DNA from: Mycolicibacterium chubuense
GTDB taxonomy: Bacteria > Actinomycetota > Actinomycetes > Mycobacteriales > Mycobacteriaceae
NCBI RefSeq assembly: GCF_001044255.1
Contig: NZ_JYNX01000015.1
Location: forward strand, 1 to 62,338
Length of the DNA stretch: 62,338 bases
Reading direction: 5' to 3'
Position numbers and translations under genes: made by a program. The notes under the pieces were generated by a model. The model saw only the letters and a program-made list of their open reading frames with translations, did not search any database and was not told where the DNA came from. Positions 24,459 through 37,768 of this stretch are shown here, in pieces. How positions within the stretch are numbered: the stretch's first letter is position 1; each line of letters begins with the position of its first letter.

Positions 24459-24710
24459 TCACGACAGATCGCGCTCCGCGGCGCGCTTGATGAGGTCGGC
24501 GGCCAGGTCGGCGCGCCGGCGCGTGCGGTGGGTGTTGATCCGTTTGCGGACCACGCCGTCGTCGAACACCACGACGATCTCCACGGCCCACTGTCCGCGG
24601 TCGGGCACGACCACGGTGTCGACCGCGCGGGCCTCCGCGGCCGAGCTGTCGGGGCGTACCACGGTCCGCGGCCTGTCCAGGGGGTGTTCTTGATCAACCA
24701 TGGCGATCAC
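24459..24710 (-). CDS. Small unknown protein of the hydrogenase operon
   Basis: An 83-residue, charged, soluble protein. The centre is beta-like (DTVVVPDRGQWAVEIVVVFD) and the C-terminal helix is basic (TRRRADLAADLIKRAAERD). No family is recognised. The GTG at 24710 overlaps the protease stop by four bases and would couple translation; an ATG three codons later is the alternative. Its conserved place between protease and TPR genes suggests an assembly role. Confidence 0.6.
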   Translation of the reverse strand: MIAMVDQEHPLDRPRTVVRPDSSAAEARAVDTVVVPDRGQWAVEIVVVFDDGVVRKRINTHRTRRRADLAADLIKRAAERDLS

Positions 24711-25540
24711 GTGTCCCGCTCCTCGCGGGCCGGCACCTCGATGCGCATCGCGGATTGCTCATCGTCCCAGCATGCGCGATGAACGCCGCGCAGGGGAGTC
24801 TCCCTCAACAACTCGCTGACCAGGACGGACCTGTCCCCGGCGGGGGTGCGCTGCTTGAGCAGCAGGCCGCCGCTGCGCGGACCGCGCAGCGGGATCAGCC
24901 ACAGGGCGCCGTCGCGCAGCACGGCGGCCACCGCGTCGGACGGGAACCGGGCGGCGGCGGTCGCGGCGTCGAGCCGCAGATACCCGTCGACGGTGAACTC
25001 GACGGTCACCTCGCGGGGGGCCTCGGGCCGCAGCGGCCCGAGATAGTCGCGCTCGATCAGCGCGATGACCTGTTCCATCGCCGCGGACACCGGCTCGGAC
25101 AGGTCGGCGCCCATCTCGACGCCCGCGACCTCGATCAGGAACACCGTGATGTCGGTCGGGCAGTCCTCCCCCAGTGCCCAGCGGGCGAACGCGATCGCGT
25201 GGTCCCACCGGAACGAATGGGTGTGCAAGCCCTGCAGCGGCGGAAGCTCGGCGAGCTCTTCGCCGGGCACCCGGAACGTCGTGCCCGGCGCCGAACCGGT
25301 GGCAGCGGCGTCGACGATCACCACCTGCCGCGCGCCGCGCATCTGGAACGCGACGTCCATGCCGGCGGTACCACCGTCGACCAGCTTGGCGCCCTCGGGC
25401 ACACCGCGCTCCCACAGGTGACGGACCAGCACCGGGCCCACGCCGTCGTCGCCGCGCAGCAGGTTGCCGCAGCCGATCACCAGCACGTGACAACCCGGCG
25501 GCTGGAGGGGCGCCGCCGGGTTGTCCGCGCCTGCGTTCAC
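24707..25540 (-). CDS. Hydrogenase maturation protease with C-terminal extension
   Basis: A 277-residue protein. The first 165 residues are a HupD/HyaD-type endopeptidase: LVIGCGNLLRGDDGVGP (residues 20-36), VDAAATGSAPG and LHTHSFRWDH carry the acidic and His residues expected to sense nickel. Such proteases clip the large subunit C-terminus after NiFe insertion. HucL has a 19-residue tail after its last ligand, the probable substrate. The extra 100 residues (from about 175) form an unknown beta-rich domain. GTG start, 16 bases after hucL. Confidence 0.85.
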   Translation of the reverse strand: MNAGADNPAAPLQPPGCHVLVIGCGNLLRGDDGVGPVLVRHLWERGVPEGAKLVDGGTAGMDVAFQMRGARQVVIVDAAATGSAPGTTFRVPGEELAELPPLQGLHTHSFRWDHAIAFARWALGEDCPTDITVFLIEVAGVEMGADLSEPVSAAMEQVIALIERDYLGPLRPEAPREVTVEFTVDGYLRLDAATAAARFPSDAVAAVLRDGALWLIPLRGPRSGGLLLKQRTPAGDRSVLVSELLRETPLRGVHRACWDDEQSAMRIEVPAREERDT

Positions 25541-25556: not shown

Positions 25557-27167
25557 TCACACCATCCCGTTGATGACGAACTTGTTCAGTTCCCGGCCGG
25601 TCTTGCCGTCGTAGGCGTGCACCGTGCACACCAGGCACGAGTCGAAGCTGCGGGCGACGTGGCCGAGCTCCACAGGGTCTTCGGCGTCGACGATCGGGGA
25701 CCCGACGAGCGCCCGTTCGATCGGGCCGAGGACCTCCGAGCCGTCGCGCGGACCGATGTTCCACGCCGTCGGGGTCACCACCTGATAGTTCTTGATCTTG
25801 TTGTCCTCGAGGACGATCCAGTCCGACAGCGAACCGCGGGCCGCCTCGGTGGACCCGAAGCCCTTGCCCTCGGCGTACTCGGTCGGCTTGGTGTAGAAGC
25901 TCTCCTTGAGCTCCAGCGCATCGAGCCACTGCCGGGCCCACTTGTAGTACTTCGGCGCCTCGTGCATCCGCGCGAGCTGGCGCACCATCACCGACGGACC
26001 GATGGTGTTGAAGATGTCGCCGAACAGCGGGTCGTCGTCCTGGTGCGCCGCCGCGTTGGGACCGGCCGCGGCCATCCGGCGGGCCAGCGGGCCCGCCTCG
26101 AGCGGGATGTTGCCCAGGTCGCCGACGGCGTAGCGCGGCGACTTGGCCCAGCTGTACTTGCCCTGCTTGCGCCCCTGCTCCGGGTCGAGCGGGATGGTCT
26201 CGCCGTCGAACGGATGTAGCGGGCGGTCGCCCTGATAGAAGGAGTGGGTGACGTCCTCGCGGACGTTGGCCTGGTCGAACTCGTAGTACTGCCCGCCGGC
26301 GAACACCCCGGAGCGCCCGATCAGCGCCGCGTTGCGGCCGTCGATGGTGGGGTTCTCGTAGAGCGACGGCTCGAAATACGTTCCGGTGGCGAGGTAATTG
26401 CCGACGCCCTGGCCGTACTTGTCGAGTCCGACGTCGAGGCAGTAGCGGATGAAGAAGCCGCAGTCGCTGTTGTACTGCGCCTCGTTCTCGTCGACCCAGG
26501 CGAGCACGTCGTTCCAGGTCTTGTTCTCCAGCCAGCGGTCCACCGAGCAGCCCAGCCACTGACCTTCCAGCCACGCGTCGTTCCAGTGCTCGAGAATCGC
26601 GATCGAGCGAGTCACGTCCGACAGCGTCGGCGCGCACATCACCCCGCCGGGCACCATGAAACTCGAATGCGGCCACTGCCCGCCGTAGATCGCGTACACC
26701 TCGACGGGCTTGGCGCTCAACACCACACCGGGCTGGTAGCTGGTGCCGACATAGGGCGCGAACCGGCGCACCGCCTCCTCGTACAGCGAGGACTTCGCGT
26801 AGTTCTTGTTCGTCAGGTCGATCGCGAACAGCGCATAGAAGTAGCGCGGAATCGACTGCAGCGTCTCGCAGGCCTGACAGATGTTGCGGATCAGCGTGGC
26901 GTTGTGCGGCATGTGGGTTCGCCACGCCGTGTCGAGCGCGTAGGCCGACTTGTACAGGTGGCTGCCTCCGCAGATGCCGCAGATGCGCGGGCACACCACC
27001 AGCCCGGACTGAGGATCCTTGCCGCGCAGGATGATCTCGAAGCCGCGGAACATCGCGGCCTCGGTCCAGGCCGAGGTGACGACCCCGTCCTCGATCGTGA
27101 CGCGCACATCGAGGTCGCCCTCGACGCGGCCCAGCGGGCTGACGAACAGATCCAATTGTGACGTCAT
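25557..27167 (-). CDS. hucL: [NiFe] hydrogenase large subunit (Huc/group 2a type)
   Basis: A 536-residue catalytic subunit oxidising H2. The N-terminal nickel ligand motif is RICGICGGSH with Cys63 and Cys66. The C-terminal motif is DSCLVCTVH with Cys511 and Cys514. A Ser replaces the usual Pro of DPCxxC. The last 19 residues after His517 would be removed by the maturation protease encoded next. The sequence agrees with what I remember of M. smegmatis HucL (high-affinity atmospheric H2 uptake); the oxygen-tolerant behaviour is inferred from that. AAGGA ribosome site before the ATG, 32 bases after hucS. Confidence 0.95.
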   Translation of the reverse strand: MTSQLDLFVSPLGRVEGDLDVRVTIEDGVVTSAWTEAAMFRGFEIILRGKDPQSGLVVCPRICGICGGSHLYKSAYALDTAWRTHMPHNATLIRNICQACETLQSIPRYFYALFAIDLTNKNYAKSSLYEEAVRRFAPYVGTSYQPGVVLSAKPVEVYAIYGGQWPHSSFMVPGGVMCAPTLSDVTRSIAILEHWNDAWLEGQWLGCSVDRWLENKTWNDVLAWVDENEAQYNSDCGFFIRYCLDVGLDKYGQGVGNYLATGTYFEPSLYENPTIDGRNAALIGRSGVFAGGQYYEFDQANVREDVTHSFYQGDRPLHPFDGETIPLDPEQGRKQGKYSWAKSPRYAVGDLGNIPLEAGPLARRMAAAGPNAAAHQDDDPLFGDIFNTIGPSVMVRQLARMHEAPKYYKWARQWLDALELKESFYTKPTEYAEGKGFGSTEAARGSLSDWIVLEDNKIKNYQVVTPTAWNIGPRDGSEVLGPIERALVGSPIVDAEDPVELGHVARSFDSCLVCTVHAYDGKTGRELNKFVINGMV

Positions 27168-27199: not shown

Positions 27200-28165
27200 T
27201 CAGACCACGAACATGTCTTCTTTGGACCACTGCGGCGCCGCGATACGCGCGGCCGCCGCCAGCCCCATGTAGGTGAGGTGGTCGGTTCCCTCGGGCACTT
27301 CCTTGGGGATCATGCCGCTGACCTTCTGGGTCTTGAACAGCGTTCCCGGAGCGAGGTCGAAGTGCGGGAACTCGGGCTCGGTGCAGCCGAGGCAGGGCAT
27401 ACCGGCCCGCGTCTTCGACGACTGCCGGTTCCACAGGATGCGGTTGCACGGCGAATGCGTCATCGGCCCGCGACAGCCGAATTCGTAGAAGAGGCAGCCA
27501 GTTCGGGTGCCCTCGCCGAACGACAGCGTCGACTGCTTGTACTCGAAGAACTGCACGCGGGTGCAGCCGGTCTGGGTGAAGGTCTTGAAGAACGTCTCGG
27601 GACGATGCAGATCGTCGAGGGTGATGTCGCCGGCGCGGCCGGTGGCCAGCGCGACCAGGATCTGGGTGATCCAGTCCGGATGGGCCGGGCAGCCGGGCAC
27701 GTTGATGACGGGCAGGCCCATCTTCGACCGGAAGTCGGGCCCGAGGAATCCGCCCTTCTCGCGCTTGTGGAACTGCAGCCCCGTCGAGCCGGACGGGTTG
27801 GGTTCCATCGCCGGAATGCCGCCCCAGCAGGCACAGTCACCGATGGCGACGACGATCTGGGCGGCACCGGCCAGATCGGTGACCCAGTCCTTCATCGGAC
27901 GGTCGGCGAACATGTCGGCGCGTCCGCCGTAGGCCTCCATCACGGTGCCCTCGAACACGAAGATGTCCAGTGGCCGTTCGCCTCTGGCGCAGTCGTAGAA
28001 GACCTTCTGGGCGTTCTGGCCGAGTTCGAGCCCCAGCGACGGATGCCACAGCAGATCCAGCCCGAAGTCGACGATCAGGTCGACGACGTTCGGTTCCTCC
28101 GCGTTGAGGAACGACATGGTGTTGCCGCTACAGGCACCACCCTGGAACCACAGCACCGATGCCAT
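27200..28165 (-). CDS. hucS: [NiFe] hydrogenase small subunit (Huc/group 2a type)
   Basis: A 321-residue iron-sulfur subunit that relays electrons from the NiFe site. There is no twin-arginine signal or membrane tail, so it stays in the cytoplasm. The N-terminal motif is CSGN (Cys12...Asn15) where standard small subunits have CxGC, so one proximal-cluster cysteine is missing. Further cysteines occur in GDCACWGG, VPGCPAHPDW, RTGCLFYEFGC, SPCNRI and MPCLGC. This fits the unusual clusters reported for Huc. Ribosome site GGAGAGGAG. Confidence 0.95.
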   Translation of the reverse strand: MASVLWFQGGACSGNTMSFLNAEEPNVVDLIVDFGLDLLWHPSLGLELGQNAQKVFYDCARGERPLDIFVFEGTVMEAYGGRADMFADRPMKDWVTDLAGAAQIVVAIGDCACWGGIPAMEPNPSGSTGLQFHKREKGGFLGPDFRSKMGLPVINVPGCPAHPDWITQILVALATGRAGDITLDDLHRPETFFKTFTQTGCTRVQFFEYKQSTLSFGEGTRTGCLFYEFGCRGPMTHSPCNRILWNRQSSKTRAGMPCLGCTEPEFPHFDLAPGTLFKTQKVSGMIPKEVPEGTDHLTYMGLAAAARIAAPQWSKEDMFVV

Positions 28166-28239: not shown

Positions 28240-28767
28240 TCAGACTCGTCGTCCGAAGACGCGAGCCACCTCGAGCAGGTACGCCACACCACGTGCCACA
28301 TCGGGGTCTTTGGCCGCGCCGCGCAACGTCTTCCACAGGCCGCGCACCCCGCGGGGCGCCGGCGGGACGGACGTGCGCGCCGACACCATGGCGTCGCCCA
28401 GCGCGGCGATCACCTCGGCGCCCTGCGGGTCGGTCAGCGGCGAGTTCAGCAGCGTGGTGATGGCCGGCGCCGCGTGCACCAGCCCGCCCGACAACTGCGC
28501 CAGGCTCGACGACAACTGGCCCAGCTCAACGGATTGCCCCTTGAGCTCGCCCAGCGCCGACGTCAGGTTCGCGGTGATGTCGTCGCCGCGGCGCACGAAA
28601 CCGTCCAGGCCGGTGACGAGCACCGCGAGGAGATCGGCATGCTCGAGCAACGTGTTGAGGGCGTCGGCGACGCGGGGGTCGTCGAGTCGTTCCCGCAGGG
28701 TGGCCGAAGGCCCGGCGAGAGGGGCCGGTTCCAGGACGGGAGCGCTCGCTTCACCGTTGGTGCCCAT
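28240..28767 (-). CDS. DUF1641 protein, probable HucM-like scaffold
   Basis: A 175-residue protein starting the operon. After a short disordered head, residues 22-100 are helical with heptad-like spacing (LLAVLVTGLDGFVRRGDD, then LGELKGQSVELGQLSSSL). A DUF1641-like segment follows (RGVRGLWKTLRGAAKDPDVA near residue 150). In M. smegmatis the gene just upstream of hucS encodes HucM, the scaffold that holds the Huc oligomer and links it to the membrane. By position and helical character this is its likely counterpart. Ribosome site AGGGAGG six bases from the ATG. Confidence 0.7.
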   Translation of the reverse strand: MGTNGEASAPVLEPAPLAGPSATLRERLDDPRVADALNTLLEHADLLAVLVTGLDGFVRRGDDITANLTSALGELKGQSVELGQLSSSLAQLSGGLVHAAPAITTLLNSPLTDPQGAEVIAALGDAMVSARTSVPPAPRGVRGLWKTLRGAAKDPDVARGVAYLLEVARVFGRRV

Positions 28768-28811: not shown

Positions 28812-28817
28812 AACGTA
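28812..28817 (-). promoter_or_regulatory. Candidate -10 box of the huc operon
   Basis: TACGTT on the minus strand, 44 bases before the first huc ATG. No -35 consensus is visible; instead the tandem AraC-type boxes begin 20 bases upstream, as expected for an activator-dependent promoter. Confidence 0.5.
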
Positions 28818-28837: not shown

Positions 28838-28873
28838 CTATCGCTTTCGCGCAACTCCTATCAGGATTGCGCA
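28838..28873. promoter_or_regulatory. Tandem AraC-type operator between huc and araC
   Basis: Two direct copies of CTATC-N6-GCGCA at 28838-28853 and 28858-28873, exactly 20 bases apart (two helical turns). Paired half-boxes at this period are the classic layout of AraC-family operators. They lie between the two divergent -10 elements, covering the -35 zone on either side. Confidence 0.65.
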
Positions 28874-28881
28874 CAGATGGT

Positions 28882-28887
28882 TACGCT
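28882..28887 (+). promoter_or_regulatory. Candidate -10 box of the araC gene
   Basis: TACGCT, nine bases after the tandem boxes, giving a leader of about 95 bases before the ATG at 28989. Confidence 0.4.
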
Positions 28888-28988
28888 GAAGCGAGACCGA
28901 TGTTTAGGAGTCTTGCCTTGCGGACGCGAATTACCATAGCCGACTGCGAAGTTAGCCTTTCCTTCCTCAATCCTCCGCACCAGTTCTG

Positions 28989-30050
28989 ATGTCGCGTCTG
29001 ACCCGTCTCGGCTTCATCGACATCCGCCGCACCAGCGACCCGGTGCGTCGCAAGGTGCGATCGCGCGGCGTCCCGCCCGCACTGACCGACCACGAGATCT
29101 TCTACACCGAGGACATCGCCAAGGCGACACGGCTGATGGGTCGCGCGCTGTCCCCGCTGGCCCTCACCGTGGATCCCGCCGAGGCCGATCGGTTCGCGGC
29201 CACGATGCACGGCGTGCGGCTGCGCAACGTCAGCATGCTCTACGTCGACCTGCACGTCCCCGCGACGATCGACATCCCCGAATCCGGCCGCTACTACGCG
29301 GTGCACATGCCGATGAACGGGGTCGCCACCGTCGTCCACCCGTCTTCGACATTCCAGGCCAACACCATGCGGTCACTGGTCTCGAGCCCTGGAGTGCCGC
29401 TGCGTCTGGAGCTCGGCGTCGACACCCCGCAGCTGCTGATCCGGATCGAGGCGCAGGCGATGTCCGCCCACGTGACCCGGCTCATCGGACGAAACCTGGT
29501 GCGCCCCTTGGTGTTCGAGCCCGAGTTCGATCTGGCGACCGAGGCGGCGATGCGCTGGCACGCCGCGGTGCAACTGGTGCACACGGAGGTCTACCACGCC
29601 GGTTCGCTGATCCAGAAGGGGCGGGCCATCGGCCCGGTCGAGGAACTGGTGATGAGCAGCCTGCTCTATCTGCAGCCGTCGAACTACCACGCCGACATCA
29701 CCCAGCCGTCGTCGCCCGATCCGCGCCGCACGGTCATCCAGCAGGCCATGGACTTCATCGACGACCACCTCGCCGAGCGGATCACGATGGAGTCGCTGGC
29801 CAACGCGGTGCACATGAGTGTGCGGTCGATCCAGCAGGGTTTCCGCTCGGAGCTGGGCATGTCGCCGATGGCGTTCGTGCGCGAGCGCCGCCTCGAGCGG
29901 GTGCACGAGGAACTCACCGATGCGATCCCGTCCGACGGGGTGACGGTGACAGCCGTGGCGGAACGTTGGGGCTTCCACCACCTCGGCAGCTTCTCCGTCG
30001 AATACCGTAAACGCTGGGGTGAGGCGCCGTCGGAGACGCTGCGCCGCTGA
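28989..30050 (+). CDS. AraC-family regulator, probable hydrogenase activator
   Basis: A 353-residue regulator. Residues 40-200 are a beta-rich sensing domain of the AraC_binding_2 kind (YYAVHMPMNGVATVVH). The C-terminal 100 residues hold two helix-turn-helix motifs: ITMESLANAVHMSVRSIQQG followed by FRSELGMSPMAFVRERRLERV, then VTAVAERWGFHHLGSFSVEY. It is divergent from the huc operon and adjacent to hyp genes. The tandem 20-bp boxes between it and huc, and a like box before hypF, make it the prime candidate regulator of both. The signal is unknown. Its stop is 3 bases from the convergent hypE stop. Confidence 0.88.
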   Translation: MSRLTRLGFIDIRRTSDPVRRKVRSRGVPPALTDHEIFYTEDIAKATRLMGRALSPLALTVDPAEADRFAATMHGVRLRNVSMLYVDLHVPATIDIPESGRYYAVHMPMNGVATVVHPSSTFQANTMRSLVSSPGVPLRLELGVDTPQLLIRIEAQAMSAHVTRLIGRNLVRPLVFEPEFDLATEAAMRWHAAVQLVHTEVYHAGSLIQKGRAIGPVEELVMSSLLYLQPSNYHADITQPSSPDPRRTVIQQAMDFIDDHLAERITMESLANAVHMSVRSIQQGFRSELGMSPMAFVRERRLERVHEELTDAIPSDGVTVTAVAERWGFHHLGSFSVEYRKRWGEAPSETLRR

Positions 30051-30053
30051 GCG

Positions 30054-31124
30054 TCAGCAGATCCGCGGAAGCTGTTCGCCGAGTTCGCGTTCCACCACCC
30101 GCGTGGTACCGAACGGGGTCCGGGCCACCGCCATCCCGGGGTGCTCGTCGACGACCTTGCCGATCACCGCGGATGCGGCGCCGTCGGGGTGCGCGCGCAT
30201 CGCGGCCAGCACCGCCTCGGCGTGCTCGGGCGCCACGAATGCGACCAGCTTGCCCTCGTTTGCGACCTGCAACGGATCGAGGCCCAGAAAGGAGCAGGCC
30301 GAAGCCACGGTCTCGGGCACCGGGATCGCGGCCTCGTCGAGCTGGACCCCCACCGAGGCGGCCCGGGCGATCTCGACGACCGATGCCACCAGACCGCCGC
30401 GGGTCGGGTCGCGCAACGTGTGCACCGCCGCCGGGCCGGCGGCGGCGAGCATGGCGGCCACCAGCCGGTGCAGCGGGGCGCTGTCGGTACGCACCACGGT
30501 GCCGAAGTCGATGCCCTCGCGCACGCTCATGATCGCCACGCCGTGCTCGCCGATGTCGCCGGACACGATCACCACGTCGCCCGGCCGCGCGCGTTCCGGC
30601 CCGATGTCGACGCCGTCCGGCACGACGCCGACACCGGCGGTGTTGACGAAAAGCTGGTCGGCGCCGCCCTTTCCGACGACCTTGGTGTCACCGGTGACGA
30701 TCGGCACCCCGGCTGCGGCAGCCGCCTTGCCCATCGTCGCGGCGACGGCGCCCAGCACGTCGAGTTCCAGCCCCTCCTCGATGATGAAGCCGGCGGTGAG
30801 CCCGATCGGTTGGGCGCCGCTGCAGGCGAGGTCGTTGATAGTGCCGTTGACCGCGAGGTCGCCGATGTTGCCGCCGGGGAAGAACAGCGGCTGCACGACG
30901 TAGGAGTCGGTGGTCAGCGCGATGCGGCCGGTTCCGGTGTGCAGCACCGCCGAATCCCGCGACGGACCCGCGGCGCCGCCGAATGCCGGCAGGAACAGGT
31001 TCTCGATCAGCTCCTCGGACAGCACACCTCCCCCGCCATGGCCGAGCACCACCCGCCGGGTCTCCCGCAGCGGGAGCGGGCACACCCAGTCGGCGGGGTC
31101 GACCGACACCGGGGTCTCAGACAT
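30054..31124 (-). CDS. hypE: Hydrogenase maturation factor HypE
   Basis: A 356-residue PurM-like protein. HypE dehydrates a carbamoyl group, carried as a thiocarbamate on its C-terminal cysteine, to the cyanide ligand of the NiFe site. The required C-terminus PRIC is intact. ATP-site motifs are LGHGGGG and [20 protein letters not shown], then VTGDTKVV. It starts inside the hypD end (8-base overlap) and closes the hypF-C-D-E operon. Confidence 0.95.
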
Positions 31125-32223
31125 GGGTGGCCGCGGCTTCGAGCCTGCGGAACTGGTAGTACGCCGCGCACGCCCCCTCACTGGACACCATCGTCGCGCC
31201 GAGCGGCGTGCGCGGGGTGCAGGTGCGGCCGAACGCCGGACACTCGTTGGGCTTCAGCAGCCCCTGCAGCACTTCCCCGCTGTGGCATTCGGCGGATTCG
31301 GCGACCTGCAGATGGGCGACCCCGAAGCGGCGCTCGGCGTCGAAATCGGCGTAGCGGGGCGACAGCGTCCATCCCGATCGGGGGATCATCCCGATGCCGC
31401 GCCACTGCCGGTCGGTGACGGCGAAGACGTCGGCGAGGGTCTGCTGCGCCACCTCGTTGCCCTCGGCGCTGACCGCGCGCGGATAGGCGTTGCGCAGCGC
31501 GGGCGTGCCCTCCTCCAGCAGTTCGACCACCTGACGGACGCCCTCGAGCAGGTCGAGCGGCTCGAAGCCAGTCACGACGATCGGCACCCCGTACTCCTTG
31601 ACCAGAGGCTGGTATTCGGCCGTGCCCATCACCGAGCACACGTGGCCGGCGGCGAGGAAGCCCTGCACGCGGTTGGTCGGCGAGGACAGGATCGCGGTCA
31701 TCGCCGGCGGCACCAGCACGTGCGAGACCAGCATCGAGAAGTTCGTCAGCCCCAGCCGCTGCGCGTGCACCACCGCCATGGCGTTGGCCGGCGCGGTGGT
31801 CTCGAAGCCGACGCCGAAGAACACCACCTGTTTGTCGGGGTTGTCGGCGGCCACCCGGGTGGCGTCCAACGGTGAATAGACGATCCGGACGTCGCCGCCG
31901 CGGGCCCGCACCGCGAACAGGTCCCGGCTGCTGCCCGGCACCCGCAGCATGTCCCCGAACGAGCAGAAGATCACGTCGTCGCGCGAAGCGATCTCCAATG
32001 CCCGGTCGATCATCTCCAGCGGGGTGACGCACACCGGGCAGCCCGGTCCGTGGATGAACTCCACCGCGCCGTCGAGAAGCTGGTCGATACCGTTGCGGAT
32101 GATCGAATGCGTCTGACCGCCACACACTTCCATCACGGTCCACGGCCGGGTGGCGCGGCGGCGGATCGCGTCGACCAACGTCCGGGCCGCCACCGGATCG
32201 CGGAACTCGTCGAGGTACTTCAC
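31117..32223 (-). CDS. hypD: Hydrogenase maturation factor HypD
   Basis: A 368-residue iron-sulfur protein that, with HypC, holds the Fe(CN)2CO unit. Conserved motifs are VCGGQTHS (residues 33-40), [33 protein letters not shown] and the C-terminal cysteines in ALRNAYPR...[20 protein letters not shown] and [18 protein letters not shown]. The GTG start overlaps the hypC stop by four bases. Confidence 0.95.
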
Positions 32224-32495
32224 GCCGGATCCCTCCTCGCGAGCGGCTGCTCACCGGCGAGTTCCTCGTCGAGCACCCCCAGTTCGGCGAACATGCGCAA
32301 GGTCTCGTGCGCCGACGCCTCGTCGAGCCGCGTGATCGCGAAACCCGCATGCACGATGGTGTATTCGCCGACCTGCATGTCGGGCAGATACGCCAGGCAC
32401 ACCGTTTTGGTGGTGCCCCCGAATTCGACCGTGGACATCCGCGTCCCGGCCTCCTCCCAGATGTCGATCACCTTCCCGGGGATACCGAGGCACAT
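32220..32495 (-). CDS. hypC: Hydrogenase maturation chaperone HypC
   Basis: A 91-residue HypC/HupF protein. It begins with the essential MCLGIPG, whose Cys2 binds the iron unit and the large subunit precursor. The body [17 protein letters not shown] and [10 protein letters not shown] fits the family. It overlaps the hypF end by 28 bases and the hypD start by four, so translation of the three is likely coupled. Confidence 0.95.
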
Positions 32496-34786
32496 GGCTC
32501 ACTCCTTTCCCGCAGCGCACCCGGCGACACGGACAGCGCGGCCACTGCCGCCTGCCCGAGCGCGAGCCCGCCGTCGTTGCACGGCACCACCCGGTGGGTG
32601 AGCACCTCCAGTCCTCGCGCCCGCAGTCCGGCCGCGATCCCGGCCAGCAGCAGGCGATTGGCGAACACGCCGCCGGTCAGGCCCACGGTGGGGATCCCCA
32701 CCCCGGTTGCCGCGTCGCCGGCGGCGCGCACCGTCGCGCGGATGACGGCGTCATGGAACAGCCGCGCCAGGTCGGCGCGTGCCGCCCCGGCGCGCACACC
32801 GTCGACCAGGCACCGCATCAGCGGCGCCGGGTCGAGCACACCGGCCGACACGTCGAAGTCCGCCGCCATGCTGTCCCGCCCCGCCCGGGCCAGGTGCTCG
32901 AGTTCGACAGCCGCCTGACCCTCGTAGGTCACGAGCTGGCACACCCCGAGCAGGCTGGACACTGCGTCGAAGAGCCGGCCCATGCTGGTGGTCGCCACGC
33001 ATCCCACCTCGCGGTCCAGCTGCTGGGTCAGGATGTGCATGCCCCGCGCTCCGAGCGCGGCCACCGGTGGCAGGTCGCCCGCCGGATCGATGCCGGCGCG
33101 CCGGAGCAGGTCGACTGCGATCCGGGCCGGGGACCGGACGGCGCCGTCGCCGCCGGGCAGCCGGAACGGCGCCAGGTGGCCGACCCGGGTGAACTCGGCG
33201 GGGCCGGTGACGGCGAGCAGCTCGCCGCCCCAGATCGTGCCGTCGGTACCGAACCCGGTGCCGTCGAAGGCCACAGCGAGCATCGGGTCGCCGAGGCGCC
33301 GGTGTTCGGCCAGCAGCGACATGGCGTGGGCGTGGTGGTGTTGCACCGCGATCAGCCGACCGCCGTGGCGCTGCGCCCACCGCGTCGTCGCGTACCCCGG
33401 ATGCGCATCGTGGACGACGACCTCCGGCACGCTCCCGGTCAGGAACGAAAGATGGTGCACCGTCGCGGCGAAGCAGCCCTGCGTGCGCGGGTCGGCCATG
33501 TCCCCCAGATGCGACGACAGATGCGCCCGGCCCTGGCCGCCGGTCAGCGCGAACGTGGTCTTCAGGTCGCCGCCGGTGGCCAGGATGCACGGCGCTCCGC
33601 CGGCGCCGAGCGGGACGGGCAGCGGCGCGAAGCCGCGAGATCGCCTCAGCGGCAACTCGTTTCCGTCCGCGTCGATGCTCACGACCGAGTCCTCGCAGGG
33701 CACGTGGATGGGGCGGTCGTGGTCGAGCACCGCGTCGGCCAGTCCGTCGATCCATCCCAGATCCTCGGTGCGGTAGACGATCGGCGAGCCGCCCTGGTTG
33801 GCCGAGGTCATCACCAGTGCCGGCACGTCGAGGTCGGCGAAGAGCAGGTGGTGGACGGGCGAATACGCGAGCATCACCCCGAGGTCGCGGAGGTGCGGCG
33901 CCACCTCGTCGCTCACCGTGCCCGGGTGCGCCGCGAGCAGCACGATGGGTGCGGCAGGCGAGGTCAGTGACCGCGCCGCCGAGTCGTCGACGACGCAGAT
34001 CCGCCGCGCGTGGTCGAGGTCGGCCACCATCACTGCGAACGGCTTGGCGGGCCGATTCTTGCGCTGCCGCAACCGGGCGACGGCGGCGTCGTCGTCCGCG
34101 CGGCACGCCAGGTGGTAGCCGCCGATGCCCTTGATCGCGACGATCAGTCCGTCCCGCAGCGCGGCCGCGGCCGAATCCAGGGCGGAGCCGCCACCGTGCG
34201 AACCGTGCCAGGTCAGCCGCGGCCCGCACTCGGGGCAGGCGATGGTCTGGGCGTGATAGCGCCGGTCGGCAGGGTCGCGGTACTCCGCGGCGCACGTCGG
34301 ACACATCGGAAAGTCCGCCATCGTGGTGGCCGGGCGGTCGTAGGGCAGGTCGGTGATCACCGTGTAGCGCGGCCCGCAGTTCGTGCACGTGATGAAGGGG
34401 TGGCGGTGCCGCCGGTCGGCCGGGTCGAACAACTCCCGCAGGCAGTCCGGGCACGTCGCGATGTCGGGCGAGACGAGGGTCCGCCTGCCGTCGTCACCGC
34501 CCGGGGCGCTGTCGAGGATGCGGAACACCCGTTCCCCGAGGAGCGGGCGGGTGGTCACCACGAACGTGTCGACGTGCGCCAGCGGCGGCGGGGCGTCGCG
34601 CAGATCCTGGAGCGCCGCCTCAACACGCACGCCGGGCCCCTCGAGTTCACACTGCACCGATCCCGCGTCGTTGAGCACGAACCCGCCCAGCCGGTGCGCA
34701 GCGGCGATCCGCGCGACCGTGGGGCGGAACCCCACTCCCTGGACCACGCCGGTGATGCTCAGCCGTACGCGCGTGTGTGCGCTCAT
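32468..34786 (-). CDS. hypF: Carbamoyltransferase HypF
   Basis: A 772-residue enzyme making the carbamoyl-AMP used for cyanide ligand synthesis. Domains in order: acylphosphatase (residues 1-90, VQGVGFRPTV); two zinc fingers (CPDCLREL...CTNCGPRYT and CPTCAAEY...CPECGPRL, about 105-180); a YrdC domain (about 195-380); and a carbamoyltransferase domain with VQHHHAHAMS near 475 and VTYEGQAAVELE. First gene of the leftward hyp operon. The AraC-type box and a TAGCCT hexamer precede it. Confidence 0.95.
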   Translation of the reverse strand: MSAHTRVRLSITGVVQGVGFRPTVARIAAAHRLGGFVLNDAGSVQCELEGPGVRVEAALQDLRDAPPPLAHVDTFVVTTRPLLGERVFRILDSAPGGDDGRRTLVSPDIATCPDCLRELFDPADRRHRHPFITCTNCGPRYTVITDLPYDRPATTMADFPMCPTCAAEYRDPADRRYHAQTIACPECGPRLTWHGSHGGGSALDSAAAALRDGLIVAIKGIGGYHLACRADDDAAVARLRQRKNRPAKPFAVMVADLDHARRICVVDDSAARSLTSPAAPIVLLAAHPGTVSDEVAPHLRDLGVMLAYSPVHHLLFADLDVPALVMTSANQGGSPIVYRTEDLGWIDGLADAVLDHDRPIHVPCEDSVVSIDADGNELPLRRSRGFAPLPVPLGAGGAPCILATGGDLKTTFALTGGQGRAHLSSHLGDMADPRTQGCFAATVHHLSFLTGSVPEVVVHDAHPGYATTRWAQRHGGRLIAVQHHHAHAMSLLAEHRRLGDPMLAVAFDGTGFGTDGTIWGGELLAVTGPAEFTRVGHLAPFRLPGGDGAVRSPARIAVDLLRRAGIDPAGDLPPVAALGARGMHILTQQLDREVGCVATTSMGRLFDAVSSLLGVCQLVTYEGQAAVELEHLARAGRDSMAADFDVSAGVLDPAPLMRCLVDGVRAGAARADLARLFHDAVIRATVRAAGDAATGVGIPTVGLTGGVFANRLLLAGIAAGLRARGLEVLTHRVVPCNDGGLALGQAAVAALSVSPGALRERSEPCASVSPGR

Positions 34787-34816
34787 GGCGCGGACTCCTC
34801 GAACCTCAGTGCCCTC

Positions 34817-34822
34817 AGGCTA
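34817..34822 (-). promoter_or_regulatory. Candidate -10 box of the hypFCDE operon
   Basis: TAGCCT on the minus strand, 30 bases before the hypF ATG. Its distance to the upstream CTATC box (20 bases between) is the same as at the huc promoter. Confidence 0.5.
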
Positions 34823-34842
34823 TCTCCGCGCACCGAACCCAA

Positions 34843-34858
34843 CTATCGAAATCTCGCA
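34843..34858. promoter_or_regulatory. AraC-type box upstream of hypF
   Basis: CTATC-N6-TCGCA, one base off the huc/araC unit. Extended by four bases (to CGCACAGA) it matches 15 of 20 positions of the second huc/araC unit. A perfect second copy at the 20-base period is absent, although GCGCA recurs at 34868. Confidence 0.5.
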
Positions 34859-34893
34859 CAGACTTCTGCGCATTTCCGACGCCCCGTCGGGAT

Positions 34894-34899
34894 TACGCT
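34894..34899 (+). promoter_or_regulatory. Candidate -10 box, leaderless hypA
   Basis: TACGCT ends seven bases before the hypA GTG. The same hexamer serves as the putative araC -10 element. Confidence 0.45.
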
Positions 34900-34906
34900 G
34901 GCGCCC

Positions 34907-35272
34907 GTGCACGAACTGTCGCTGTGTCACGCCATCGCCGGCGTGGTGCGTACCCACGCCGACGGCCGCCCGGTCGAGGTGGTGCGGGTGCGCGTCGGAG
35001 CGCTGCGGCAGGTGGTTGCCGAATCGCTGCTGTTCTGCTGGACGATCGCGGCCGAACACGAGGGTCTGGGTGACGCCGTCCTGGAGTTGGAGCAGGTGCC
35101 CGCCGCGGTGAGCTGCCGAGCGTGCGGCCGGGAATCGGAGATCACGTCCCGGTGGTCGGTGCGCTGCCCGGCCTGCGGGAGCGGCGACGTCGCGGTGGTG
35201 CGCGGCGAGGAGTTCCTGGTGACCTCGATCGACATCCGGTCCCACGAAGCAACCGAGGCCCACCATGGGTAG
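34907..35272 (+). CDS. hypA: Nickel chaperone HypA
   Basis: A 121-residue HypA that, with HypB, inserts nickel into the large subunit. The N-terminal MHELSL (with GTG start) supplies the nickel ligands His2 and Glu3. The structural zinc site is formed by CRACGRES and CPACGSGD near residues 70-95. It begins right at a candidate transcription start (leaderless). Its end overlaps hypB by eight bases. Confidence 0.94.
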   Translation: MHELSLCHAIAGVVRTHADGRPVEVVRVRVGALRQVVAESLLFCWTIAAEHEGLGDAVLELEQVPAAVSCRACGRESEITSRWSVRCPACGSGDVAVVRGEEFLVTSIDIRSHEATEAHHG

Positions 35273-36041
35273 GTTCCACCGCCACGACGACGGCACCGTG
35301 CACAGCCACGACCACGACCACGACGGCGACCACGACGGGGCGCACGGGCACGGCGACCACAGCGGCTACCAGACCGCCACCCAGCGGGTCGACGTCCTCG
35401 AGGCGATTTTCTCCGAGAACGACGTGCGCGCGGCGGGCAACCGGGAAGCCTTCGCCCGCAACGGGATCAGATCGCTGAACATGATGAGTTCCCCCGGCTC
35501 GGGCAAGACCGCCGTGCTCGCCGCCACGCTCGACGAACTCGCCGGCGACGTGGCCGTCGGCATCATCGAGGGCGACATCGCCACCGACCTGGACGCCGCC
35601 CGGCTGTCCGGGCGCGGCGCGCAGATCTCACTTCTCAACACCGACAACGGTTTCGGCGGGGAGTGCCACCTCGACGCGCCGATGGTGAGCCGCGCACTGG
35701 CCGGGTTGGACCTGCCCGGGCTGGACCTGGTGATCATCGAGAACGTCGGAAACCTGGTGTGCCCGGCCGAATTCGACGTGGGTGAGAACGCCAAGGTGAT
35801 GGTCTACTCGCTCACCGAGGGCGAGGACAAGCCGCTGAAGTACCCGGTGATGTTCCGCGCCGTGGACGTGGTGCTGCTCAACAAGATCGACCTGGCCCCC
35901 TACCTCGACGCCGACGTCGCGACCTACACCGAGCGCATCCGGCAGGTGAACCCGGGTGCGGTCATCCTGCCGGTCAGCGCCAAGACCGGCGAGGGCATGG
36001 ACGCATGGTTCGCCTGGCTGCGCACTTTCGTCGTGGGCTGA
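35265..36041 (+). CDS. hypB: Hydrogenase nickel incorporation GTPase HypB
   Basis: A 258-residue GTPase. Residues 4-35 are a His/Asp-rich metal-storage run (about 12 histidines; SHDHDHDGDHDGAHGHGDH). The P-loop is SSPGSGKTA near residue 75; further motifs are EGDIATDLDA, GECHLDAPMV, ENVGNLVCPAEFD and LNKIDLAPY. Cys and His between switch regions bind the transferred nickel. Its stop is three bases from the convergent aldR stop, marking the right end of the hydrogenase island. Confidence 0.95.
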   Translation: MGRFHRHDDGTVHSHDHDHDGDHDGAHGHGDHSGYQTATQRVDVLEAIFSENDVRAAGNREAFARNGIRSLNMMSSPGSGKTAVLAATLDELAGDVAVGIIEGDIATDLDAARLSGRGAQISLLNTDNGFGGECHLDAPMVSRALAGLDLPGLDLVIIENVGNLVCPAEFDVGENAKVMVYSLTEGEDKPLKYPVMFRAVDVVLLNKIDLAPYLDADVATYTERIRQVNPGAVILPVSAKTGEGMDAWFAWLRTFVVG

Positions 36042-36044
36042 CGC

Positions 36045-36557
36045 TCACAGCGGGGACGCGCCGCGCAGATGCTCGAAGATCAGCGACGTCTGTGTGCCGG
36101 CGACGTCGGCGTCGGCGTTGAGGTTCTCCACGACGAACGACCGCAGGTCGTCGGTGTCGCGCGCGGCGACGTGCAACAGGAAGTCGTCGGCACCGGCGAG
36201 GAAGTACACGTCCATCACCTGCGGCTTGCGCCGGATCTGGCCGATGAAGTTGCGTATCTTGCCGCGCGCGTTGGCCTGCAGGCTAACCGAGATCATCGCC
36301 TGCAGGGTGAGCCCGATCGCCGAGGGATCGATGTCGGCGTAGAACCCGCGGATCACGCCCAGCTCCTGCAGCCGGCGCACCCGGCCGTGGCAGGTCGATG
36401 CGGCGATACCCACCAGGTCGGCCAGCGCGCTGTTGGGTATCCGCGCGTCGTCGTGCAGGGCGGTCAGGATGCGCCGGTCGACATCGTCGATGGCGGCTCG
36501 AACATCCTTCGGAGCCGGGTTTCGCGGAACGGATCGCTCCGATGATTCCTCTGCCAT
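36045..36557 (-). CDS. aldR: Lrp/AsnC-family regulator AldR
   Basis: A 170-residue regulator. Helix-turn-helix around residues 24-72 (IDDVDRRILTALHDDARIPN, then LADLVGIAASTCHGRVRRLQ) and a C-terminal RAM ligand domain (VMDVYFLAGADDFLLHV). It is divergent from ald with 95 bases between, as with AldR (Rv2779c) in M. tuberculosis, which controls alanine dehydrogenase in response to alanine. The extended N-terminus (about 20 residues) is normal for this group. Confidence 0.9.
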   Translation of the reverse strand: MAEESSERSVPRNPAPKDVRAAIDDVDRRILTALHDDARIPNSALADLVGIAASTCHGRVRRLQELGVIRGFYADIDPSAIGLTLQAMISVSLQANARGKIRNFIGQIRRKPQVMDVYFLAGADDFLLHVAARDTDDLRSFVVENLNADADVAGTQTSLIFEHLRGASPL

Positions 36558-36588
36558 AGCGGGATCGTAGCGAATTATCGTCAGTATT

Positions 36589-36618
36589 ATTGTGTTGCTA
36601 CCGATAGTTCTTCACAAT
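36589..36618. promoter_or_regulatory. Inverted repeat in the aldR-ald control region
   Basis: ATTGTG and CACAAT form a perfect 6-base inverted repeat with an 18-base spacer in the AT-rich divergent gap. Lrp-type regulators often bind spaced half sites; its role as an AldR site is inferred from position. Confidence 0.4.
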
Positions 36619-36652
36619 CGACGTAACCCTTTCGACGATTCGAGGAGTAACA

Positions 36653-37768
36653 ATGCGTGTCGGTGTGCCGACCGAGATCAAGAACAACGAGTACCGGGTC
36701 GCGATCACGCCCGCGGGTGTGGCCGAGTTGGTGCACCGCGGCCACGAGGTGCTGATCCAGGCCGGCGCCGGCGCCGGTTCGGCGATCACCGACACCGACT
36801 TCAAAGGCGCCGGCGCGCAGATCGTCGACACCGCCGACGAGGTGTGGGCCGAGGCCGATCTGCTGCTCAAGGTCAAGGAGCCGATCGAGCCGGAGTACGC
36901 CAAGATGCGCTCGGGCCAGACGCTGTTCACCTACCTGCACCTCGCCGCTTCCAAGCCGTGCACCGATGCGCTGCTGGCCTCCGGCACCACCTCCATCGCC
37001 TACGAGACCGTCCAGACCGCAGACGGCGCGCTGCCTCTGCTCGCCCCGATGAGCGAGGTCGCCGGCCGGCTCTCGGCGCAGGTCGGCGCCTACCACCTGA
37101 TGCGCACGCAGGGCGGTCGCGGCGTCCTGATGGGCGGCGTGCCCGGTGTGGCTCCGGCCAAGGTCGTGGTGATCGGCGGCGGGATGGCCGGTGACAACGC
37201 CGCCGCCGTCGCCTGGGGCATGGGCGCACACGTCACCGTGTTCGACCTCAACATCAACATCCTGCGCAAGATCGACGCCGAGTACGGCGGGGCCATCGAG
37301 ACCCGGTACTCCTCGCGGCTCGACCTGGAGACCGCGGTCAAGGAGGCCGACCTGGTGATCGGCGCCGTGCTGATCCCCGGCGCGAAGGCACCCAAGCTGG
37401 TCACCAATTCGACAGTCGCGGCGATGAAGTCGGGCGCGGTGCTGGTCGACATCGCGATCGATCAGGGCGGCTGCTTCGAGGATTCGCGCCCGACCACGCA
37501 CGACGATCCCACGTTCCCCGTGCACGACACGGTGTTCTACTGCGTGGCCAATATGCCCGGCGCCGTGCCGCGCACCTCCACCTACGCACTCACCAACGCC
37601 ACCATGCCGTACGTTCTCAAGCTCGCCGACAAGGGCTGGCAGGAGGCGTGCCGCGGCGACGGCGCCCTGGCCAAGGGCCTGTCGACGCACGAGGGCGGAC
37701 TGCTATCCGAGCAGGTGGCCACCGATCTGGGCCTGCCCTACACCGATCCGGCCGGCCTCATCGGCTGA
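36653..37768 (+). CDS. ald: Alanine dehydrogenase
   Basis: A 371-residue NAD-dependent enzyme interconverting L-alanine with pyruvate and ammonium, and also reducing glyoxylate in mycobacteria. [20 protein letters not shown] opens the protein. The substrate residues in LLKVKEP and FTYLHLAAS (His95 region), the Rossmann motif [13 protein letters not shown] near residue 175 and the [17 protein letters not shown] stretch are all present. GAGGAG ribosome site before ATG. It is induced under hypoxia and nutrient shift in relatives, a theme shared with hydrogenases. Confidence 0.96.

What the first reader, a model, noticed from the sequence alone, without database searches (positions are those of the whole stretch)
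28838..34862. A shared AraC-type box links huc and hyp operons
Two direct copies of CTATC-N6-GCGCA, exactly 20 bases apart, sit between the huc -10 (TACGTT) and the araC -10 (TACGCT). A related unit (CTATC-N6-TCGCA; 15 of 20 bases alike over the extended box) lies before hypF. At both leftward promoters the CTATC box begins 21 bases from the -10 edge, and neither promoter has a visible -35 consensus. This is what a dedicated AraC activator of structural and maturation operons would look like. I know of no described operator for a mycobacterial Huc regulator.
Basis: partly seen in the sequence, partly recalled or inferred. Interest (0 to 1): 0.75.

Follow-up and report, generated by a model that had tools for sequence, protein, structure and literature searches.

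The report
Conserved AraC operator controlling air-hydrogen enzyme genes
Mycobacteria that can live on traces of hydrogen from the air carry a very well-preserved DNA element, next to the gene for its probable AraC-type switch protein, in front of the hydrogenase genes and, usually, the genes that assemble the enzyme; it is a strong candidate for a regulator that researchers report as unidentified.

Summary
Confirmed. Two direct 16-base units (28838-28853, 28858-28873; period 20) lie between hucM and araC; a related unit (34843-34858) lies before hypF. Each leftward -10 sits exactly 20 bases from its box.

All 68 fetched araC loci have the pair with a 4-base gap; 66 are clearly above the null. 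Of 396 mycobacterial genomes 102 have HucL and 87 this AraC, all 87 within the 102. Of the 15 with HucL but no AraC, 13 give enough sequence, and none has the pair.

The pattern -10/N20/box hits the window's genome twice, at huc and hypF; 16 AraC+ genomes 26 times (25 at these promoters); 35 AraC- genomes once.

The hypF box keeps its spacing in 35 of 41 gaps, but is more degenerate and lost in five.

Best reading: the AraC protein binds these units as a dedicated regulator, probably an activator, of Huc and its Hyp maturases. Binding, sign and signal are untested. M. smegmatis, where the direct huc regulator is reported unknown, was not found in the collections.

The parts
28812..28817 (-). 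-10 of the hucM-S-L promoter (TACGTT on the - strand), 20 bases from box 1
   Evidence: ANNNTA at exactly this offset in 62 of 69 loci
28838..28853 (+). AraC box 1, CTATC-N6-GCGCA; read toward huc it is TGCGC-N6-GATAG with GATAG next to the -35 region
28858..28873 (+). AraC box 2, direct repeat of box 1 (4-base gap, period 20)
28882..28887 (+). possible araC -10 (TACGCT); weak, TANNNT here in 11 of 69 loci
28918..28989 (+). possible leader ORF (TTG start after GGAG) whose TGA overlaps the araC ATG (TGATG)
   Evidence: inference
28989..30050 (+). araC-family regulator, 353 aa: AraC_binding_2 plus HTH_18 / HTH_AraC
28240..28767 (-). hucM (DUF1641), first gene of the huc operon
   Evidence: name by position, by analogy with MSMEG_2261
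27200..28165 (-). hucS, [NiFe] hydrogenase small subunit
25557..27167 (-). hucL, [NiFe] hydrogenase large subunit (RICGIC and DSCLVCTVH in the translation)
24707..25540 (-). hydrogenase maturation protease (HycI family)
30054..31124 (-). hypE
31117..32223 (-). hypD
32220..32495 (-). hypC
32468..34786 (-). hypF
34817..34822 (-). -10 of the hypF promoter (TAGCCT on the - strand), 20 bases from its box
34843..34858 (+). AraC box of hypF, CTATCGAAATCTCGCA
34865..34882 (-). inverted, weaker box-like element facing hypA (GCGTCGGAAATGCGCAGA on the - strand)
   Evidence: a GGAAA..CGCA-type core in 27 of 35 gaps; role inferred
34894..34899 (+). possible hypA -10 (TACGCT), 11 bases from the inverted element
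   Evidence: conservation not tested
34907..35272 (+). hypA
   Evidence: below NCBIfam's cut-off for TIGR00100, above Pfam's
35265..36041 (+). hypB

Best explanation
The boxes are half-sites of an operator for the AraC-family protein encoded at 28989-30050, a dedicated local regulator of Huc biogenesis. At huc two half-sites in direct repeat (period 20, about two helical turns) end 20 bases upstream of the -10. This places the inner half-site at the -35 region, so the bound protein can contact RNA polymerase at a promoter without a -35 consensus (class II activation, as recalled for E. coli araBAD). At hypF one half-site has the same distance and orientation; a weaker inverted element faces hypA. 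Shown here: the sequence, its conservation, its fixed spacing, its near-confinement to these promoters genome-wide, and its presence or absence together with this AraC. Inferred: that this AraC binds it, that binding activates rather than represses, that a small ligand or redox signal linked to carbon starvation acts on the N-terminal domain, and that araC itself is controlled from the same site.
For: All 68 fetched araC loci have the pair upstream of araC with exactly a 4-base gap. In 51 sequence clusters the box columns carry up to 2.6 bits, the columns further left (-90 to -42) at most 0.24. 87 of 396 genus genomes have this AraC and all 87 are among the 102 with HucL (compared by eye). Of the 15 HucL+ AraC- genomes 13 give at least 0.8 kb beyond hucS (the box lies a median 0.71 kb beyond it in 65 loci): best pair match 17-20 of 31, against 24-31 for 66 of 68 araC loci. 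In 8 further genomes that are not training assemblies, 6 with araC have the pair (25-30 of 31; in one, G497, the araC frame changes) and 2 without a full araC do not. ANNNTA lies exactly 20 bases from box 1 in 62 of 69 loci. hypF: 35 of 41 gaps have C[TA]ATC exactly 20 bases from ANNNTA, 11 of 8200 shuffles do; the huc-trained matrix gives p<=0.05 in 30 of 41. The strict pattern gives 26 hits in 16 AraC+ genomes, 15 at huc/araC, 10 at hypF/hypA, 1 elsewhere, and 1 hit in 35 AraC- genomes. The pair model has one strong match in the whole genome (E 2.4e-11, next 0.26). No sigma-70-type promoter is found at either gap. In two near-identical Pseudonocardia loci where hucM and araC lie apart, each keeps a pair. 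The protein is AraC-family by Pfam. In M. smegmatis HypC-E rise together with Huc in a gylR mutant (PMC13098282, section 16 read); in slow growth hyp genes MSMEG_2271-2276 rise 1.5-2.0-fold with MSMEG_2262-2264 (2.3-5.4-fold) (PMC2799521, Table 2 seen as a passage).
Against: No binding or expression data. The hypF box is more degenerate (usually CAATC) and is missing in 5 gaps that keep araC (L071, L075, L078, L081, L103); its matrix score is not significant (p>0.05) in six more (L079, L144, L158, L160, L161, L162). A model of -10 plus box (R2) found huc/araC in 8 of 8 genomes but hypF in only 2 of 8, one of them weakly (E 0.239). The strict pattern finds hypF in 10 of 16 and misses huc in one (G117). 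Three genomes (of L047, L053, L070) have only a distant hypF type with no box. L097 and L098 score 20 and 19 of 31, inside the null range. The boxes point the same way for huc and hypF but the opposite way for araC, and the araC -10 is not conserved. In M. smegmatis a huc-promoter pull-down gave no specific binder (PMC13098282, passage), and this species was not found among my genomes. M. agri (L082) shows araC and boxes but no hucS/L in the 21 kb held.
Confidence: 0.82

Rival explanations
1. The same sites are bound by AraC but it represses: it sits over the -35 region of huc and hypF and leaves when carbon runs out.
For: The inner box overlaps where a -35 would be; the sign cannot be read from sequence.
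Against: No sigma-70-type promoter is found at either gap, so both look activator-dependent; AraC proteins with a ligand domain are mostly activators (recalled). The conserved 20-base spacing to the -10 fits contact with polymerase; a repressor would need it less.
Confidence: 0.12
2. The boxes belong to another DNA-binding protein (for instance a global starvation or CRP-type factor), and araC is only a neighbour.
For: No binding test exists. A separate CRP-like palindrome lies beside the boxes in many relatives, so other factors may act here.
Against: A global factor would be expected to have many sites; the strict pattern is nearly confined to these two promoters, and it is missing where araC is.
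Confidence: 0.06
3. The conserved block is part of an extended promoter for an alternative sigma factor, not an operator.
For: It lies at a fixed distance from the -10 at huc and hypF.
Against: Conservation spans nearly 40 bases in two repeated units, too long for a -35 element; the outer unit lies a further 20 bases out.
Confidence: 0.03
4. The huc/araC pair is the true operator, but the hypF box is a relic or a site for something else, so structural and maturation operons are not linked by AraC.
For: The hypF box is single, degenerate, missing in 5 of 41 gaps and not significant by matrix in 11 of 41; model R2 finds it in 2 of 8 genomes.
Against: Exact 20-base spacing in 35 of 41 gaps versus 11 of 8200 shuffles; matrix match without training on hypF sites in 30 of 41; the only other hit of the strict pattern in the window's genome.
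Confidence: 0.1

Closest known systems
E. coli AraC / araI1-araI2 at araBAD (recalled; no call fetched the operator)
   Same: Family of the protein (the AraC DNA-binding domain 2k9s is matched); two about 17-base half-sites in direct repeat about two helical turns apart; inner half-site at the -35 region.
   Different: Different half-site sequence (TGCGC-N6-GATAG read toward huc); period 20 here, about 21 recalled for araI; no looping site looked for; ligand unknown; targets are hydrogenase genes.
GylR-dependent catabolite repression of huc in M. smegmatis (PMC13098282: abstract, passages and section 16 read)
   Same: Concerns the promoter of the same kind of operon and the joint rise of Huc and Hyp proteins.
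   Different: GylR, Crp1 and Crp2 did not bind the huc promoter there and the direct regulator is unidentified; the AraC operator described here is a candidate for that missing step if M. smegmatis has the gene, which I could not check.
H2-responsive two-component hydrogenase activators (HoxA/HupR, names recalled; the C. necator system is described in PMC13289019, part 1 of 2 read)
   Same: A dedicated activator of hydrogenase operons.
   Different: Another kind of protein, a response regulator fed by a regulatory hydrogenase.
MSMEG_0307, AraC protein of the nat operon in M. smegmatis (PMC4266540, start of the abstract in a search listing only)
   Same: A mycobacterial AraC protein with proposed DNA motifs.
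   Different: Another locus; its motifs are described as palindromic; no link to hydrogenase seen in what I read.

Membership tests
AraC/XylS family regulator | C-terminal domain with two helix-turn-helix motifs | tested here: met
   PF12833 at 270-353 (E 1.6e-21) and PF00165 at 257-297 (E 2.1e-11); the profile matches solved AraC, MarA and SoxS chains
AraC/XylS family regulator | N-terminal ligand/dimerisation domain | tested here: met
AraC/XylS family regulator | Operator of about 17-base half-sites about two turns apart next to or over the -35 region (definition recalled) | tested here: met
   Period 20, 4-base gap in 68 of 68 loci; 20 bases from the -10 in 62 of 69; at hypF only one clear half-site in this orientation
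AraC/XylS family regulator | Specific binding of the protein to the operator, ligand response | not testable with these tools
   Needs gel shift or footprint
Group 2a [NiFe] hydrogenase (Huc) | Large subunit with two CxxC motifs binding NiFe; small-subunit partner | tested here: met
   PF00374, PF01058, PF14720; RICGIC and DSCLVCTVH in the translation
Group 2a [NiFe] hydrogenase (Huc) | HucM scaffold gene directly upstream of hucS | tested here: inconclusive
   A DUF1641 protein stands at 28240-28767, the place of MSMEG_2261 in M. smegmatis (PMC10017518 passage); the two sequences were not compared
Group 2a [NiFe] hydrogenase (Huc) | Phylogenetic placement in group 2a | not tested
   Group inferred from domain content, the HucM-like gene and gene order
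CRP-controlled promoter | TGTG-N8-CACA palindrome at the huc promoter | tested here: not met
   In the window the best match has 3 mismatches; 46 of 69 loci have a perfect copy within 60 bases of box 1

The most novel reading that the evidence does not exclude
This AraC protein is the unidentified direct regulator of the high-affinity hydrogenase Huc: a two-promoter switch kept across mycobacteria and other actinobacteria that fires hydrogenase and maturation genes together. In most of the loci studied it is overlaid by a CRP-like palindrome at the huc -10, so that carbon status and a specific ligand are read at one 60-base control region.
Probability: 0.4. Interest if true: 0.8.

Novelty: new member of a known kind. 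Interest (0 to 1): 0.64.

Why it matters
Soil microbes that consume atmospheric hydrogen control a large part of its global budget, and a 2026 study of Huc states that the direct transcription factors controlling it are unidentified (PMC13098282). A named protein with a defined operator, nearly unique in the genome, makes the question testable with one deletion and one gel shift. The element also gives a sequence rule for joint control of hydrogenase and Hyp genes, and could help in producing Huc for enzyme fuel cells.

Tried and rejected
Bare motif enrichment in the window: rejected as evidence by itself (6 matches at one mismatch, 6.7 expected). A larger regulon: model R2 over 8 genomes (8 of the 16 used for the pattern search) gave the 8 huc/araC sites and hypF of the window's own genome (E 1.7e-4; that site was in the model's training set); every other match had E above 0.06, among them hypF of G054 (0.239); hypF of the other six genomes was not listed. 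Of the weaker matches two recur in a second genome (L204/L211 and L214/L219), but both lie inside long ORFs; the rest were not inspected. One strict-pattern hit in AraC+ genomes lies at a locus with an MFS-like and a TetR-like ORF (L172, by eye), judged unrelated; the one in AraC- genomes (L194) was not inspected. CRP-like site as the main explanation: absent from the window. Finding M. smegmatis: no HucL+ genome of about 7.0 Mb in one contig in three overlapping searches of 396, 296 and 383 genus genomes, and no such title among the 68 loci, so its AraC status is open. Structure prediction of the AraC protein was not available. A coupled leader ORF before araC stays a side observation.

Rows dropped or set apart: one of 42 hypF/hypA gaps (L043, the same gap as L158) before the count of 41. 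hypF was sought in 29 of the 33 loci that have neither the window's gene order nor araC-hypAB (L048, L055, L068, L077 not given). The four distant-type hypF matches (L163, L164, L165, L167) were kept as controls: three come from genomes with only that type, L167 is the second hypF of a genome that also has the huc type. Of the 15 HucL+ AraC- stretches L116 ends inside hucS and L126 about 0.5 kb beyond it; both were left out of the 13. The null was sought over up to 4.5 kb on both strands, the 68 loci over 330 bases on one strand.
Full report
WHAT IS THERE. The window holds a leftward hydrogenase operon (hucM DUF1641, hucS, hucL, maturation protease), a rightward araC-family gene (28989-30050), a leftward hypF-hypC-hypD-hypE operon and a rightward hypA-hypB pair. 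HucL has RICGIC and DSCLVCTVH. Between hucM and araC are CTATCGCTTTCGCGCA (28838-28853) and CTATCAGGATTGCGCA (28858-28873), period 20. Between hypF and hypA is CTATCGAAATCTCGCA (34843-34858). Both leftward -10 hexamers, TACGTT and TAGCCT, lie exactly 20 bases from their box; no sigma-70-type promoter with both hexamers is found in either gap.

CHANCE. With one mismatch allowed the motif is not enriched in the window (6 against 6.7 expected). Exact matches number 5 in the 5.9-Mb genome, 3 of them here; the backward control has 15. A sequence model of the pair, built from 51 other loci, has one strong match in the whole genome (E 2.4e-11, the next 0.26). A half-site matrix trained on the same 51 loci, without any hypF site, ranks the three sites first to third in the window: 27.1, 24.2 and 15.8, the next 10.0. 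One of the 51 loci, L036 of M. chlorophenolicum, is nearly identical to the window.

CONSERVATION AT HUC/ARAC. A search of genome contigs with an alignment of 21 orthologues gave 68 distinct loci: mycobacteria, Pseudonocardia, and MAGs titled Frankia, Streptosporangiales and others. All 68 have both units with exactly a 4-base gap upstream of araC. Sixty-six match the 31-letter consensus at 24-31 places; the two most distant (L097, L098) at 20 and 19, inside the range of regions without araC. In 51 clusters (window included) the box columns reach 2.6 bits; the columns from -90 to -42 stay at or below 0.24, while some columns to the right of the boxes are also conserved. ANNNTA stands exactly 20 bases from box 1 in 62 of 69 loci including the window. 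In L093 and L094 (Pseudonocardia, 99% identical there) hucM and araC lie apart, apparently by a duplication, and each side has a pair.

LINKAGE TO THE PROTEIN. In 396 genus genomes 102 have HucL (E at most 1e-150) and 87 have this AraC (E at most 1e-80). Reading the two tables together, all 87 are among the 102, and 86 of 87 have both genes on one contig (G041 is the exception). Among the first 100 relatives plus the window's genome 21 have the gene at 65-100% identity; the next long match is at 35%, with shorter matches of the DNA-binding end up to 46%. For the 15 HucL+ AraC- genomes I took the stretch upstream of hucS. Thirteen reach at least 0.8 kb beyond hucS, where the box lies a median 0.71 kb beyond it in 65 loci; their best pair match is 17-20 of 31. 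A further HucL search brought 13 genomes outside the 396. Of the other 8, five have an araC matched in one piece and the pair (25-30 of 31); G497 has the pair (28) and an araC whose frame changes; G498 has a truncated hucL next to a partial araC and no pair; G509 has no araC and no pair.

THE HYPF BOX. Gene order differs: araC next to hypEDCF with divergent hypAB, as here; hypF/hypA beyond the other end of huc or elsewhere; or araC-hypA-hypB in one run, where no separate box would be needed. Searching 29 of the 33 loci of the second kind for hypF gave 26 genomes with the huc type (64-70%) and 3 with only a distant type. In 41 hypF/hypA gaps (42 less one duplicate), 35 have C[TA]ATC exactly 20 bases from ANNNTA, against 11 of 8200 shuffled gaps; the huc-trained matrix gives p at most 0.05 in 30 of 41. 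The usual form is CAATCACAATTTCGCA. Six gaps lack it at that distance: L071, L075, L078, L081 and L103 have no such box (all have the window's gene order and keep araC; whether they form one clade was not tested); L153 has it one base off. In L079, L144, L158, L160, L161 and L162 the spacing is kept but the score is not significant. An inverted element facing hypA has a GGAAA..CGCA-type core in 27 of 35 gaps. The four distant-type hypF genes have no box.

GENOME-WIDE SPECIFICITY. In 35 AraC- genomes (the 15 HucL+ ones and 20 others) it gave 1 match. The window's genome has exactly two, at huc and hypF. A broader model (R2) gave no third target below E 0.06 in 8 genomes, but it also found hypF in only 2 of 8. 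Two of its weak matches recur in a second genome, and both lie inside long ORFs.

MECHANISM. Shown: sequence, spacing, conservation, near-confinement, joint presence and absence with araC. Inferred: the AraC protein (ligand domain PF14525 plus two helix-turn-helix motifs) binds two half-sites in direct repeat at huc, the inner one at the -35 region, and helps RNA polymerase at a promoter without a -35 consensus; at hypF one half-site does the same. Read toward huc the half-site is TGCGC-N6-GATAG. This is how AraC works at araBAD (recalled).

WHAT IS KNOWN. Kropp et al. 2026 (PMC13098282; abstract, passages and section 16 read) state that the regulators of huc are unresolved, that GylR, Crp1 and Crp2 do not bind the huc promoter, that a promoter pull-down gave no specific binder, and that HypC-E rise with Huc in a gylR mutant. 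[quoted passage not shown] Berney and Cook 2010 (PMC2799521, passages) list MSMEG_2262-2264 (2.3-5.4-fold) and hyp genes MSMEG_2271-2276 (1.5-2.0-fold) as higher in slow than in fast growth. I found no paper that names an AraC regulator or an operator for Huc in the listings; subscription papers are mostly not held, and most listed papers were not opened. M. smegmatis did not appear among the loci, nor as a HucL+ genome of its size, so its status is untested.

VERDICT. A real, strongly conserved operator, most likely of the adjacent AraC protein; a new member of a known kind of regulator, interesting because it gives a concrete answer to test for an open question.

Noticed in passing
relatives, mostly starting 41-44 bases left of box 1, e.g. 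L054, L060, L067: A CRP-like palindrome TGTG-N8-CACA touches the huc -10: perfect in 46 of 69 loci within 60 bases of the box, absent in the window (3 mismatches) and its near relatives.
   Followed up: partly
window 28918-28989; L044, L054, L060 and others: A short leader ORF with a GGAG signal precedes araC and often ends over its start (TGATG in the window); peptides begin MIATDTL-like in many species. A crude rule gave a candidate in 50 of 69 loci, 21 with the stop within -1 to 6 bases of the araC start; several candidates are in-frame extensions of araC.
   Followed up: partly
L093 and L094, 7600-10100: Near-identical Pseudonocardia loci with what looks by eye like a duplicated hucM start and a PadR-like ORF between hucM and araC; both operator copies are present.
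   Followed up: partly
L151 and L152, upstream of hypA: A further strong box facing hypA in M. gordonae and a related MAG (TTATCGGTGTCGCGAAGA, score 18.4), not seen in the window.
   Followed up: no
L082 (M. agri): araC with its boxes, a DUF1641-like ORF (by eye) and hyp genes but no hucS or hucL in the 21 kb held.
   Followed up: no
L235 (G498) and L234 (G497): L235: a truncated hucL stands directly beside a partial araC; hucS, hucM and the operator are missing. L234: the araC match changes frame at about residue 210 while the pair is kept.
   Followed up: no
downstream of box 2 in many relatives, about 28884-28894 in the window: A conserved CG-N5-GCGC-like block, possibly a third weak half-site or a hairpin at the araC promoter.
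   Followed up: no
window 36045-37768: An Lrp/AsnC-type regulator gene divergent from alanine dehydrogenase, next to hypB.
   Followed up: no
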